Positions 52,386 through 63,942 of a stretch of 64,000 nt of DNA are shown one piece after another. Position numbers and translations under genes: made by a program. The stretch covers positions 45,660-109,659 of IMG/VR virus record IMGVR_UViG_3300023179_000039, one strand, 5' to 3'. Under the pieces are notes generated by a model that was given only the letters and a program-made list of their open reading frames with translations, had not been told where the DNA came from and made no database searches. The first letter of the stretch is position 1. Each line of letters begins with the position of its first letter. This stretch comes from a virus.

Positions 52386-55300
52386 ATGGCAAAATTTGTT
52401 TTTAAAGCTAACGTAGGTGGGGCAGGGTCAAACGTAGTACCAATATTACCCACACCCACGACTACACCTACAGAATCACCTCCCCTGCCTTCTGAGACAC
52501 CTACACAAACGCCTACCGCTACACCTACGAAAACTACAAATTTAGCTGTATCACAGACACCCACTCAAACACCTACCGTTACAAAGACGCCTACTAATAC
52601 ACATACGGTAACCCCATCCATCACCTTAACACCTACATCGACGCTGACGCCTACCCATACACCTACTTTATCTCCTACAGTTACTCAAACGCCTACTAAT
52701 ACACCTACTGTTACTGTAACAAATACACCTACTAATACTTTAACTCCTACAAATACCCCCAACCCCACTCCTACAGAAACACCTACATTGACACCTACAG
52801 TTACAATGTCGGAAACGCCTACTAATACACCTACCTTAACTCCTACTTTGACGCCTACAGAGACACCGACTAATACACCTACCGTTACTGTTACTAATAC
52901 GACTACTGTTACGCCGTCAGAAACACCAACAAATACACCAACAGTAACAAACACCGTTACACCGACAGAAACGCCAACCGAAACGCCTACTAATACACCG
53001 ACAAATACTGTTACACCTTCATTTACATTTACACAGACACCTACAGAAACACCTACTCTTACCCCAACATGTACAGAAACCCCGACAAATACAGTTACTC
53101 CAACTGAAACTCCGACTGAAACTCCGACAAATACACCTACAGTAACTTCAACAGTAACACCTACAAATACTGTAACAGAAACACCTACACAAACACCAAC
53201 CGTCACACCGTCCTTTACACCTACAGAAACCCCGACAAATACCCCTACTGTAACGGTAACTAATACTGTAACGCCATCGTTTACTCTAACTGAAACACCT
53301 ACAAACACCGTTACGCCGACATTTACACCAACTGAAACCCCTACTAATACACCGACCAATACTTTAACTCCAACTTATACACCTACCGTCACAGTAACAA
53401 ATACACCTACTAATACTTTAACCCCTACTTATACGCCTACCGTCACAGTAACAAATACACCTACTGTGACACCTACCTATACTGTAACGCCTACTAATAC
53501 AGTTACACCGACTACCACATTAACATATACACCTACCTTTACTCCTACTAATTCACCTACAACTACAATGTTCGATACAATGACACCGACACCCACTTTA
53601 ACGCCTACCAATACACCTACCAACACAAAAACGCCGACAGTTACACCAACTAACACAGTATCTCCTACACTGACAATGACATCAACTGTTACACCTACTG
53701 TTACACCTACAGTTACGAAAACAGCAACACCTACTTTAACACCAACTAATACACCCACAGTTACTGTAACAAACACACCTACAAATACTCTTACTCCAAC
53801 CCCGACAAATACCCCTACTGTAACGGTAACTAATACTGTAACGCCATCGTTTACTCCTACACTTACACCTACAGTAACACCTACAGTAACGCCTACTAAT
53901 ACACCAACAGTTACGGTGACAAACACACCAACTAATACCGTAACGCCTTCGTTTACATTTACTCAAACTCCTACTATAACACCGACCAACACACCAACTA
54001 ATACCGTTACGCCTACAATAACGCCTACTGTTACCGTGACAAATTCACCAACTAATACAGTTACGCCTACTAATACTGTAACTGTCACGCCTACCAATAC
54101 ACCTACCAACACAGTTACACCCACTAATACTGTTACTGTAACACCTACAAATACTGTTACACCAACTGTAACACCTACAGTAACTCCGACAAATACCGTT
54201 ACACCTTCGTTTACATTTACACAAACACCTACAGTTACACCGACCAATACAGTAACGCCTACTGTAACGCCTACTGTAACGCCAACAGCAACACCTACTT
54301 ATACTGTAACGCCTACTAATACCCCTACACTTACAGTTACAGGCACACCTACCCCTACACTTACAGTTACAGGCACACCTACTAATACGCCAACAAATAC
54401 AAGAACACCTACTTTAACACCTACCGTTACGCCAACAGTAACTCCGACAAACACGGTAACACCATCATTTACATTTACACAGACTTCTACCGTTACACCG
54501 ACCAATACAGTAACGCCTACTGTTACACCTACAGTTACGAAAACAGTAACACTAACACCCACCGTTACACCTACTAATACAGTTACCTCAACTGTTACAC
54601 CAACTATAACTCCTACAAAAACCGTAACACCGTCCTTTACGTTTACGCCAACAAATACGTTAACACCTACAATTACACCTACCAATACACAGACTCCTAC
54701 CGTTACACCAACTAATACTATTACACCTACTGTTACGCCGACTGTAACCCCTACAAAGACGTTAACACCTACTTTAACGTTAACACCTACAGTAACACCA
54801 ACTAGTACGCCGACACCAACACAGACGCCAACACCTTCTATTACTCCTACCACATCTCTAACTCCTACTATTACACCAACAAATACTGTTACACCAACTG
54901 TAACACCCACAGTTACACAAACAATAACACCTACTACAACGCAAACACCTACTTATACACAAACGAGCACAGTGACGCCAACTATTACGCCTACCACATC
55001 TGAGACACCCACTATTACGCCTACCACATCTGAGACGCCTACCTTAACACCAACAGTGACACAGACACCTTCTTTCACATTTACACCTACGGTAACAATA
55101 ACACCTACTACTACACAAACACCTACTGTAACAATAACACCTACTACTACACAAACACCAACAAATACCCCAACAGTAACACAGACGCCAACATTAACAC
55201 CAACAATAACACCTACATATACACCAACTAAAACACCTACGCAGACTTTGACACCTACTAATACGCCCACCGTTACACCTACACCTACTAAGACGCCTAC

Positions 55301-55841
55301 AGTAACACCAACAATAACGCCCACGGTAACTAAGACACCTACACAAACACCTACAACTACATTAACACCAACAATAACGCCCACGGTAACTAAGACACCT
55401 ACACAAACACCTACAACTACATTAACACCAACAATAACGCCCACGGTAACTAAGACACCTACACAAACACCTACAACTACACCTACAGATACGCCAATAC
55501 TAGCAAATTATATGAATACTTCTGTTGTATGTGATGGTACTGCACAGTCTGCATGTATAGGTACAACTCCTTACAGTACCTTAAATATTAGTGGAGTTGC
55601 AGGGCTTATATTTAAGTTTAATTGTAGTACAAATTATAATACTGCTGTTGATACAGGGTTAACTAATCAAATCTATATTAATGGCGTACAGGTTGCTACT
55701 ATTAACTTCCAGAGAAGGTCACCTACATCATCATATTATGAATTATTCTCCGTACAGAACGGTGTAGGTGCACCTGTATATTATGGTAAGTTTAGATCTA
55801 ATCTTACTAAGATATATTTCCCTGAGGATAACCAGACTTAA
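52386..55841 (+). CDS. Giant Thr-Pro-rich (mucin-like) fibre protein
   Basis: A 1151-residue protein in three parts. Residues 1-22 are an anchor-like start shared with the preceding short gene. Residues about 23-1037 are almost pure Thr-Pro repeat (TPTNTPT, TPTVTPT, TETPT and FTPT variants), with Thr at about every second position and Pro at every third. Residues 1038-1151 are a globular domain ([53 protein letters not shown]) with two or three Cys. The repeat should be an extended, unfolded or polyproline-II rod, a potential site of dense O-glycosylation. It is intact, in frame and without stop codons. The C-terminal domain could be the receptor-binding tip. GC is higher than its neighbours. 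Confidence 0.75.
52449..55497 (+). repeat. 3-kb Thr-Pro coding repeat array
   Basis: Degenerate hexamer/dodecamer array on ACACCTAC/ACGCCTACT-type units, biased to T/A/C with almost no G on the plus strand. Several longer direct duplications lie inside it, for example ACCACATCTGAGAC units at about 54980-55037 and the 60-bp triplicate at 55303-55481. Confidence 0.9.
55303..55481 (+). repeat. Perfect 60-bp tandem repeat, three copies
   Basis: The 60-nt blocks starting 55321 and 55381 are identical, and a third copy runs to 55481. Each encodes a 20-residue Thr-Pro unit. Exact identity in an otherwise degenerate array points to recent duplication. Confidence 0.9.
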
Positions 55842-60900: not shown

Positions 60901-63414
60901 ATGGGGTTAAACATACTTACACAAGATCATAAATTTACAGGAGCAGTTTATATTAATAATCTGTCCTTAAGTGCTATTAATAGTGATTCCTTAATAGTAA
61001 ATTCAGATTCATTGTCAGCTAACAGCTTGAAAACATCTTTTAATACAGGAGTTGCAACAAATAATTATAGTTTTGCAGAAGGGTATAATACTTTAGCATC
61101 TGGAGAGAGTAGCCATGCTGAAGGTGATTCTACCATTGCCTCTGGTGATCAAAGCCATGCAAGTGGTATCAGTACGGTAGCTTATGGAGCAGGGTCATAT
61201 ACCGAAGGTTATGCTACTAGTGCAACTGACTACTACGCACATGCTGAAGGTGATACCACTATTGCTTCTTATTATGCTACTCATGCAGAAGGAGGTAATA
61301 CTAAAGCAATTTATACATATGCTCATGCTGAAGGCCATGATTCGTTAGCATCCGGTCTAGTTTCACACGCAGAAGGCGAAGATACAGTTGCCTCTGGCAA
61401 TTATTCACATGCTGAAGGTAGATATACATCTACAGGGTATAGAGTGCCTTTTAATACCTACACATATACAACAAAAACATTTACCTTTACATCAACTACA
61501 AGTGCTAATTTTGCCTTTTTAAATGATCCCGGATATGAAAATTTCGTTTTAAAAACGCTTGCTAATGGTTCATTAAAGTTTATAACTGTTTCGTATAGAG
61601 ACGCCGTAGACGGTTATATTATAATACAGGACGATGTTATCGGGGTAGATATTGCTCCGGGATCAGGAGGTTGGATAGTAGATAAGAGTGGTAATACAGC
61701 TCACGCTGAAGGTAACTCTACGCAAGCCTATGGAAATAGCTCACATGCTGAGGGAGAAGGTACAATAGCTTCTGGAAATAGAGCACATGCCGAAGGATTA
61801 TCTACACAAGCAACTGGCAATCAAGCACATGCTGAAGGCGATACTACTATTTCTTCAGGTAGAGCAAGTCATGCAGAAGGAAGAGATAATACTGCTTCCG
61901 GTGCTTCTTCTCACGCCGAAGGCCGTAATAATATAGCTTCAGGTGAGAGCTCTCACGTAGAAGGTAAACAATCCAACGCATTTGGAATTGCATCTCATGC
62001 AGCAGGCTATCGTGCTCAAGCAAAACAAAATTATACATATGTATGGACGGATGGTAATTTAGGTACAGCAACACAAGATGTTTCTTCAACTATAACTGGT
62101 CAATTCTTAGTTTCTGCATCTGGTGGAATGTTTATACCAGGTAATTTAGGTATTGGAACAAGCGCAAATGATCAAGCACTCACCGTTGTCGGGACAATTT
62201 CTACAAATAATAATATGTCTAGTAAAGAATGGGTATCTACTTATACCACAGTACAGGGTAATAGCGGTACCTGGGGAACAGTTCCTTCTAGTTATAGTTC
62301 AATTTCTATATCAGATAATAACTTCTCTACTTTGCAGCTTTCTGCAGTATCGGTAACTGTAAATTCCGGAACACCTGGCTCGCCTACAACTACAAATTAT
62401 ACTGCAGGTGCAACAACGTGGGTATGCCCGGCTGGTGTTAATAGTGTAACTATTGAAGGGTGGGGAGGTGGAGGAGCAGGAGCCGGCGCTCAAAGAACTG
62501 GTGCTAGCGGTGTATGTTATGGTGGTGGTGGTGCTGGTGGTGGCTATGCTAAATCCGTTATAGCTGTTACCCCGGGCGCAACCTACTATATAAACGTAGG
62601 TTCCGGTGGTACTGCTACAAATCCACCTGTTAATGGAACAGTTAATTCTGGAGGCGATACTTGGTTTAATAGCGTAAATTCTTCTGCAGGCGCACAAATT
62701 ATTGCCCGAGGCGGTGTTGGTGCACCTGATGTAGTTACTGCAAGTGGTACCGTAGGTACAGCAGGTATTGCACTTAATACCAATGTAGGTAATGTTATAA
62801 CATATACCGGGGGCAGTGGTTCAATAGGTGTAGCGTTAAACGGGTTTTCAGGCGGTGGAGGTGGTTGTGCAGGATCTACAGGTAATGGTAATACCCCGAC
62901 TAATGGTACAGGTCTTGGCGGTACAGCAACTGCTAGTAACGGTGGCCCTGGTGGTAATGGTAATTTTGCAGCAGGAGCTGGAAACTCCGGGCCCGGTGCA
63001 GCGCCTGTTTCAAATTATGGCGGTGGTGGTGGAGGCGCAAGAGCATCTGCTGCAGCACAAATAGGTGGAAACGGTGCGCCGGGGTATATGACACTTACTT
63101 ATACAGTACAACCTCTCACTAAAACAGTAAGTAATTTAATTCCTGCAGGTAGCTTAGGTTATGGTGTTGTAGTTAATGTAATTGCAAAAGGATCTGCTAC
63201 TGCAACTACATTTGATATATATGATTCAACCGGTTTTTATTGGGGTAAAAGCATAAGTACGGCTACTGGAACTAAGACAAACTCAACAAATTATAATTTA
63301 TCTAGCATACCGTTTTATACTGCTTCTCCTACCGTCACGCTTTCTTCTAATAATACGTTCAACAATACAGACTTTAGAGTAACATCATATTTTCAGAATG
63401 TAATTAGCTTTTAA
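60901..63414 (+). CDS. Tail fibre with YadA-head-like repeats and glycine-rich domain
   Basis: An 837-residue fibre. Two blocks of about 14-residue repeats (residues about 60-180 and 266-375) have the pattern SHAEG.DS.ASG..SHAEG, the trimeric YadA/Hep_Hag head motif, which forms a left-handed beta roll in trimeric adhesins. A strand domain lies between them (residues about 181-260). FLVSASGGMFIPGNLGIGT precedes a glycine-rich domain (about 498-733: YTAGATTWVCPAGVNSVTIEG then long GGGG/GAG stretches), resembling the receptor-binding glycine-rich domains of other phage adhesins. The last 100 residues are a plain beta domain. The stop is 5 nt from the 3' end of the convergent tmRNA. Confidence 0.72.
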   Translation: MGLNILTQDHKFTGAVYINNLSLSAINSDSLIVNSDSLSANSLKTSFNTGVATNNYSFAEGYNTLASGESSHAEGDSTIASGDQSHASGISTVAYGAGSYTEGYATSATDYYAHAEGDTTIASYYATHAEGGNTKAIYTYAHAEGHDSLASGLVSHAEGEDTVASGNYSHAEGRYTSTGYRVPFNTYTYTTKTFTFTSTTSANFAFLNDPGYENFVLKTLANGSLKFITVSYRDAVDGYIIIQDDVIGVDIAPGSGGWIVDKSGNTAHAEGNSTQAYGNSSHAEGEGTIASGNRAHAEGLSTQATGNQAHAEGDTTISSGRASHAEGRDNTASGASSHAEGRNNIASGESSHVEGKQSNAFGIASHAAGYRAQAKQNYTYVWTDGNLGTATQDVSSTITGQFLVSASGGMFIPGNLGIGTSANDQALTVVGTISTNNNMSSKEWVSTYTTVQGNSGTWGTVPSSYSSISISDNNFSTLQLSAVSVTVNSGTPGSPTTTNYTAGATTWVCPAGVNSVTIEGWGGGGAGAGAQRTGASGVCYGGGGAGGGYAKSVIAVTPGATYYINVGSGGTATNPPVNGTVNSGGDTWFNSVNSSAGAQIIARGGVGAPDVVTASGTVGTAGIALNTNVGNVITYTGGSGSIGVALNGFSGGGGGCAGSTGNGNTPTNGTGLGGTATASNGGPGGNGNFAAGAGNSGPGAAPVSNYGGGGGGARASAAAQIGGNGAPGYMTLTYTVQPLTKTVSNLIPAGSLGYGVVVNVIAKGSATATTFDIYDSTGFYWGKSISTATGTKTNSTNYNLSSIPFYTASPTVTLSSNNTFNNTDFRVTSYFQNVISF

Positions 63415-63419
63415 ATTCA

Positions 63420-63611
63420 TGGAGCTGGAGGGATTTGAACCCTCGTCTTGAAAAGTTTCATTTATAAGCCCTACAAGTTTATCTTAATTTAAAGTTCATA
63501 ATACTATAACTAAGAAAATTGTATTATATATGGTAATTCTATACGCCTGATAACCAATTACCCAAACACGTCAGGTCAGGAACTTGTAACACGCTTTACC
63601 TTACCAGCTCC
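63420..63611 (-). ncRNA. ssrA: tmRNA-like RNA (ssrA), compact
   Basis: 192 nt. The acceptor stem GGAGCTG/CAGCTCC with discriminator A, the T-arm GAGGG-TTCAAAT-CCCTC and the CCAGCTCCA 3' end match tmRNA ends. Positions 24-31 (TACAAGTT) pair with 133-140 (AACTTGTA), the P2 helix. Directly after P2 is an H-type pseudoknot: 32-36/62-66 (CCTGA/TCAGG) and 50-56/74-80 (GGTAATT/AATTACC), like PK1. A 7-bp hairpin follows at 85-91/108-114. No D-stem, as in tmRNA. The usual tag reading frame ending in ...LAA is not found; the best candidate, near position 90, would give a short hydrophobic peptide before TGA. CCA is not encoded. An intron-containing tRNA fits less well. Confidence 0.7.
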
Positions 63612-63833
63612 ACTCTACAGTAAAACGATCGAGTTAAACTAACTCGAGTTCGGCTTCTGCGTCAACAAAGCCATGCTGAGCAAGGATTGCATCAGCCTCT
63701 TCGAGACTCATAGCCATGTCGAAGTTATCTTCGGCATTTAATAGTTTTGCTATTAGTAACCGGACTGCCCCGGTACTTGCTCTCATAAACCACACCATTC
63801 AATCGAATCCATTCAGCCCCATGTCAAAGAACA
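63612..63833. other. Spacer between tmRNA and tRNA with hairpins
   Basis: Contains four strong inverted repeats in a row on either strand: TCGAGTTA/TAACTCGA (63629-63647 region), CGAAG/CTTCG (63719-63732), TAATAG/CTATTA (63739-63755) and ACCGG/CCGGT (around 63756-63777). No tRNA fold was found. GC is higher than in the surrounding phage DNA. A short minus-strand reading frame lies within it. Confidence 0.45.
63634..63798 (-). CDS. Possible small protein between the RNA genes
   Basis: 54 residues from an ATG at 63798. It contains RLLIAKLLNAEDNFDMAMSLEEADAILAQHGF and an acidic end. The sequence looks protein-like (helical, acidic), and GC content and codon use differ from the phage. However, it overlaps a chain of hairpins, has no box or Shine-Dalgarno sequence of its own, and may be RNA instead. 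If real it would be carried on the same transcript as the tRNA and tmRNA. Confidence 0.3.
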   Translation of the reverse strand: MVWFMRASTGAVRLLIAKLLNAEDNFDMAMSLEEADAILAQHGFVDAEAELELV

Positions 63834-63904
63834 TGGCGGGTGAGAGAATCGAACTCTCGTCTGTGGCTTATGAGACCACCAACTTACCACTTGTCCAACC
63901 CGCG
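63834..63904 (-). tRNA. tRNA with CAU anticodon, initiator-like
   Basis: 71 nt cloverleaf. 5' CGCGGGT pairs with ACCCGCC 3' except for a C1-C72 mismatch. The D arm has G10-U25, A11-U24 and C12-G23; the anticodon loop is CTCATAA (CAU) on a GTGGT/GCCAC stem; the T arm is GAGAG-TTCGATT-CTCTC. The 1-72 mismatch and A11:U24 pair are hallmarks of bacterial initiator tRNA. The third hallmark, three G:C pairs in the anticodon stem, is only partly present (two of three). Elongator Met or Ile2 is the alternative. CCA is not encoded as a full terminal triplet in the expected position. Confidence 0.75.
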
Positions 63905-63914
63905 ATAATTACTT

Positions 63915-63942
63915 ATTATACCGGTAGATTTTATATAGTCAA
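63915..63942 (-). promoter_or_regulatory. Early sigma70-like promoter of the tRNA-tmRNA unit (minus)
   Basis: On the minus strand TTGACT (63942-63937), 16 nt, TATAAT (63920-63915), 10 nt before the tRNA 5' end. It is close to consensus and has the same 16-nt spacing as the early phage promoters, so host polymerase should transcribe this unit early. Confidence 0.65.

What the first reader, a model, noticed from the sequence alone, without database searches (positions are those of the whole stretch)
63420..63611. Compact phage-encoded tmRNA without a recognisable tag
The RNA has the tRNA-like end, P2 and a PK1-like pseudoknot of tmRNA but is only 192 nt, with a single hairpin instead of PK2-PK4. 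No resume codon followed by a typical ALAA-type tag can be read. In the expected window, near position 90, the longest frame would encode a short hydrophobic peptide before TGA. It may be a decoy or modified ribosome-rescue RNA that releases ribosomes without host-protease tagging.
Basis: partly seen in the sequence, partly recalled or inferred. Interest (0 to 1): 0.75.

Follow-up and report, generated by a model that had tools for sequence, protein, structure and literature searches.

The report
Phage tmRNA with long conserved tag
This is a complete, ordinary-sized phage tmRNA (the RNA that frees stuck ribosomes), not a compact tagless one, but the tag it would add to proteins is unusual: 33 amino acids, acidic, without the usual LAA destruction ending, and kept nearly unchanged in about 30 uncultured phage contigs.

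Summary
On the minus strand, 63820-63420 is a full-length one-piece tmRNA of about 401 nt (Rfam RF00023, 99.9 bits, E 8e-38). It has P1 with G3-U70, P2, P3, a P5 hairpin holding the stop codon in its loop, and pseudoknots PK2-PK4, with compensatory changes across 26 aligned sequences. A tag is readable: resume codon GCC at 63735 with A at -4, giving AEDNFDMAMSLEEADAILAQHGFVDAEAELELV then TAA. About 30 IMG/VR contigs carry the same RNA; all encode this 33-34 residue tag ending LELV (one FELV, one LELVY). Its frame is the only one open in all sequences and is under purifying selection (dN/dS 0.19). Of 111 other tmRNA calls sampled in viral contigs, tags are 8-18 aa and 108 end in AA. No named phage has this tag; the one match among bacterial genomes is chance. 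Most likely it performs normal trans-translation with host SmpB but adds a specialised tag that is not a ClpX LAA degron; the fate of tagged proteins is unknown. The compact, tagless decoy reading is rejected; a new tag type within a known RNA family is supported.

The parts
63420..63820 (-). tmRNA gene (5' end at 63820; discriminator A at 63420; CCA not encoded)
   Evidence: Rfam RF00023 99.9 bits, model 1-374 of 374; 26-sequence alignment
63637..63735 (-). tag reading frame, 33 codons: AEDNFDMAMSLEEADAILAQHGFVDAEAELELV; resume codon GCC 63735-63733, A at -4 is 63739
   Evidence: frame open in 26/26, other frames 0/26; dN/dS 0.19; coordinates
63634..63636 (-). tag stop codon TAA, in the P5 loop
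63629..63647 (-). P5 hairpin around the tag stop codon
   Evidence: 5 pairs, 100% paired, 2 with changes on both sides
63579..63627 (-). pseudoknot PK2 (P6 9 bp, P7 6 bp)
   Evidence: 100% paired; 7 of 9 and 5 of 6 pairs with changes on both sides
63532..63575 (-). pseudoknot PK3 (P8, P9)
   Evidence: P9 100% paired, 5 of 7 pairs co-vary; P8 forms in each sequence with subgroup differences in register
63484..63527 (-). pseudoknot PK4 (P10, P11)
   Evidence: P11 100% paired; P10 7-11 bp per sequence with register shift between subgroups
63759..63774 (-). P3 of PK1 (P4 not resolved)
   Evidence: 96.9% paired, 2 of 5 pairs co-vary
63814..63820 (-). P1 5' strand (GGGGCUG) with G3-U70 to 63427-63421
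   Evidence: G3-U70 in 25 of 26 aligned rows, and in the 26th (L155) when its true 5' end is used
63421..63444 (-). T-arm and P1 3' strand
   Evidence: T stem 100% paired, 3 of 5 pairs co-vary
63833..63905 (-). tRNA-Met (CAT) gene just upstream of the tmRNA, same strand
   Evidence: ARAGORN and Rfam; same neighbour in several relatives
63915..63942 (-). sigma-70-like promoter candidate, 11 of 12 matches
   Evidence: such sites are no more frequent here than in shuffles, so weak

Best explanation
A functional phage-encoded one-piece tmRNA. Shown by sequence: alanine identity pair G3-U70, T-arm, P2, A(-4), resume codon, a conserved tag frame with its stop codon in P5, and PK2-PK4. Inferred: the host charges it with alanine; it enters stalled ribosomes with host SmpB (none was found in the phage records); the ribosome switches to GCC and adds an acidic tag of 33 residues with a central helix and an LELV end. 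Because the tag is conserved as protein but lacks the LAA-type ClpX signal, I think it most likely acts as a specialised signal read by a partner other than the ClpX LAA pocket (another host protease or adaptor, or a phage protein), not as a copy of the usual tag. The tmRNA identity is near certain (about 0.97), active tagging likely (about 0.85), the specialised non-ClpX tag less certain (about 0.55, the confidence given here).
For: Rfam match over the full model and in 26 relatives. Pair covariation 48 of 84 pairs against 31.5 in shuffles; sliding by one column drops pairing from 90.8% to about 51%. Tag frame open in 26/26, others 0/26; codon position identity 0.88/0.92/0.75; dN/dS 0.19 overall and 0.34 in codons 20-33, which neither tag pattern fixed. 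A PK1 pattern that ignores the tag finds the same loci plus one new tmRNA, again with this tag. A at -4 invariant, as E. coli A86 requires (PMC2481249). Other viral-contig tmRNA calls: 111 tags of 8-18 aa, 108 ending AA. Charged residues replacing the terminal Ala abolish ClpXP recognition (PMC12005932).
Against: No expression or tagging data. The host and its own tag are unknown, so a host-type tag is not excluded. LELV keeps hydrophobic L and V at the end, so weak ClpX or other protease recognition is possible. No phage SmpB, ClpP, Lon or SspB was detected, so no reader of the tag is known; the records may be incomplete.
Confidence: 0.55

Rival explanations
1. Ordinary degradation tag for an unusual host: the host's own protease (for example Lon, as in Mollicutes) reads this long tag and the phage simply sustains host-type quality control.
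For: Mesoplasma florum has a longer tag ending NYAFA that is read by Lon (PMC9382460). The host is unidentified, so its tag is unknown.
Against: A scan of 84,980 species genomes for the first eight tag residues gave one hit, which lies in an unrelated ORF with no tmRNA. This tests only the exact AEDNFDMA start and the tag of a relative could differ.
Confidence: 0.3
2. The conserved frame is (also) a free small protein, started at the in-frame ATG codons 7 or 9 (MAMSLEEAD...LELV), overlapping the tmRNA.
For: Residues 5-19 are the most conserved part and include two Met codons.
Against: Codons 1-6 before the ATG are conserved too and follow the A(-4)/resume arrangement; stop codon sits in P5 as in tmRNAs. 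Part of the conservation of codons 1-19 comes from the search patterns. I did not test for a ribosome-binding site.
Confidence: 0.1
3. Compact or tagless decoy tmRNA.
For: ARAGORN does not call the window's gene, and a tagless phage form (DS6A) is on record (PMC4131195; PMC11915505).
Against: Full-length model match, conserved tag frame, stop codon and pseudoknots.
Confidence: 0.02

Closest known systems
Standard one-piece tmRNA (ssrA, Rfam RF00023)
   Same: Full model match, P1 with G3-U70, P2, T-arm, A(-4) and resume Ala codon, stop codon in P5, PK2-PK4
   Different: Tag of 33 residues ending LELV instead of about 10 residues ending LAA; P4 of PK1 not resolved
Mesoplasma florum (Mollicutes) tmRNA tag
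   Same: Longer than usual tag that does not end in LAA
   Different: Ends NYAFA and is read by Lon (PMC9382460); no sequence similarity was tested here
Phage-encoded tmRNAs (mycobacteriophages Bxz1, Wildcat; Bacillus phage G; marine phage Melnitz; huge phages)
   Same: tmRNA genes in large phages (PMC4131195; PMC9004378; PMC7162821)
   Different: Melnitz has a two-piece form; this tag was not found in any of 50,697 named phage records by tblastn
Mycobacteriophage DS6A TLD-only tmRNA
   Same: Phage-encoded relative of tmRNA
   Different: DS6A has little more than the tRNA-like domain and no frame (PMC4131195); here a long frame is conserved

Membership tests
tmRNA (RF00023) | Covariance-model match above the gathering score over the whole model | tested here: met
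   99.9 bits against 47, positions 1-374
tmRNA (RF00023) | Alanine identity pair G3-U70 and T-arm | tested here: met
   L155 in its corrected register
tmRNA (RF00023) | A at -4 and an Ala resume codon | tested here: met
   requirement from PMC2481249
tmRNA (RF00023) | Tag frame ended by a stop codon near P5 | tested here: met
tmRNA (RF00023) | Pseudoknots PK2-PK4 | tested here: met
tmRNA (RF00023) | Pseudoknot PK1 (P3 and P4) | tested here: inconclusive
   P3 supported; P4 unresolved because the candidate bases never vary
tmRNA (RF00023) | Charging with alanine, SmpB binding and tagging of stalled chains | not testable with these tools
   needs experiment
tmRNA with LAA-type proteolysis tag | Short tag ending in LAA or similar non-polar AA | tested here: not met
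   33 residues, LELV end in nearly all relatives
Tagless decoy (DS6A type) | No tag frame, little more than the tRNA-like domain | tested here: not met

The most novel reading that the evidence does not exclude
A phage tmRNA that reprogrammes trans-translation: products of stalled ribosomes receive a phage-specific 33-residue tag that is not a ClpX substrate and is bound by a dedicated partner, so that rescue is uncoupled from normal host degradation.
Probability: 0.3. Interest if true: 0.8.

Novelty: new variant of a known kind. Interest (0 to 1): 0.5.

Why it matters
tmRNA tags are usually thought of as short degrons. A long tag conserved at the protein level across diverged phages, without the usual degron end, suggests selection on what the tag does, and makes it directly testable whether phages redirect the products of ribosome rescue. 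It also shows that automatic tools can miss or misread such genes: ARAGORN misses the window's copy and reads only the last eight residues of the tag in L030.

Tried and rejected
Compact or tagless tmRNA: rejected by the full-length match and conserved frame. tRNA with an intron: the tmRNA model spans the whole gene. Tag as a known domain: no Pfam match at E up to 5, no PDB sequence match at E up to 10; no second copy in 11 tag-bearing phage records. Named phages: no tblastn hit to the tag; the distant DNA search gave only short weak matches. Bacterial carrier: L031 is a chance match in an ordinary ORF. Four of the five new loci from the PK1 pattern (L153, L154, L156, L157) show no tag in any frame and read as chance matches (not scanned with Rfam). 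Host not identified: the tail sheath is under 40% identical to listed phages; no photosystem gene in nine records. AlphaFold model of the tag: one helix, residues 11-20, mean pLDDT 69, too weak for a fold search. First automatic per-sequence search for P10 often returned other helices; repeated with fixed regions. Literature searches showed no report of this tag, but only open-licence papers are held and I read passages, not whole papers.

Full report
What is there. The window is the last 64 kb of a 109,659-bp virus record. At its end, on the minus strand, lies a full-length one-piece tmRNA gene, 63820-63420 (Rfam RF00023, 99.9 bits, E 7.7e-38, model 1-374 of 374). It folds better than all 100 shuffles (z -4.1). 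A tRNA-Met gene is directly upstream on the same strand, and a promoter-like site (11 of 12 matches) precedes both, although such sites are no more frequent here than in shuffles. The record encodes a T4-type tail, terminase and clamp loader, so it is a myovirus-like phage distant from named ones.

Anatomy. Helices were first looked for by column covariation and then counted on a 26-sequence alignment. The structure I propose gives 90.8% paired cells and 48 of 84 pairs with changes on both sides (shuffles 31.5); sliding partners by one column drops pairing to about 51%. The structure was derived from the same sequences, which favours it on paired cells; the compensatory changes are the better evidence. 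PK2 (P6/P7) and P9 of PK3 are strongly supported and P11 of PK4 pairs in all sequences. P8 (71.5%) and P10 (48%) look weak on the fixed alignment; sequence by sequence, P8 has 5-10 pairs and P10 7-11, with registers that differ between subgroups. Single P10 helices are often within reach of shuffles, so P10 is the least certain helix. P1 pairs in only 75.8% of cells because stem sequence and register differ between subgroups in the alignment. P3 is supported; P4 is not resolved. A possible pairing of GGCA in the P3 loop with UGCC at the resume codon never varies and is therefore untested. The stop codon lies in the loop of P5, whose pairs co-vary.

The tag. The resume codon GCC follows an A at -4, the position essential in E. 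coli (A86; PMC2481249). The frame encodes AEDNFDMAMSLEEADAILAQHGFVDAEAELELV. ARAGORN calls the same frame in L002, L005 and L011, but misses the window's copy and misreads L030. Patterns on the tag found 28 viral loci beside the window. Rfam finds a tmRNA in all of them except L007 and L020, where the fetched DNA ends within the gene; these two rest on their PK1 and tag sequence. To avoid circularity I searched with a PK1 pattern that ignores the tag: apart from L024, it returned those loci and five new ones, of which L155 is a tmRNA, with the same kind of tag. Over 29 loci there are 25 distinct tag DNAs and 21 peptides. All end LELV except FELV in L012 and LELVY in L022. dN/dS is 0.19 overall and 0.34 in codons 20-33, which neither tag pattern fixed; the 0.07 in codons 1-19 is biased downward by the patterns. 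The tag frame is open in 26 of 26 aligned sequences and each other frame in none.

How unusual. A general tmRNA pattern in viral contigs gave 111 ARAGORN tags of 8-18 residues, 108 of them ending AA, 27 distinct. The tmRNA database paper gives 10 residues as the commonest length (PMC11915505). No named phage matches the tag.

Mechanism. Shown: the sequence features above. Inferred: alanine charging, host SmpB, template switch, tagging. The open question is the fate of the tag. In P. putida a tag ending LDD had no effect on GFP level, and charged residues in place of the terminal Ala are reported to abolish ClpXP recognition (PMC12005932). LELV keeps L and V but has an acidic residue between hydrophobic ones, so poor ClpX recognition is a prediction only. 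A long tag read by Lon exists in Mesoplasma (PMC9382460). The phage records hold no detectable SmpB (13 records), ClpP, Lon or SspB (nine records each), so any reader of the tag would be a host protein or an unrecognised phage protein; several records may be incomplete.

Verdict. A member of the tmRNA family with a new kind of tag. The compact, tagless reading is rejected; what the tag does is the interesting, open part.

Noticed in passing
L021:4300-4858 (-): Another phage contig (155,895 bp) has a tmRNA match (57 bits) running directly into a group I intron (94 bits), apparently an intron in the T-arm; it does not have the 33-residue tag.
   Followed up: partly
L018:7675-7911 (-): A group I intron about 3 kb from the tmRNA in a relative.
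   Followed up: no
52386-55841: A 1151-residue ORF made almost wholly of TPT-type repeats.
   Followed up: no
60901-63414: The 837-residue ORF next to the tmRNA has repeats matching YadA head repeats weakly (below the Pfam cut-off) and a glycine-rich domain (above it); likely a tail fibre.
   Followed up: no
L030:7677-8083: ARAGORN reads the tag as AEAKLELV, only the last 8 residues of the conserved frame; automatic tag calls for this family are unreliable.
   Followed up: yes
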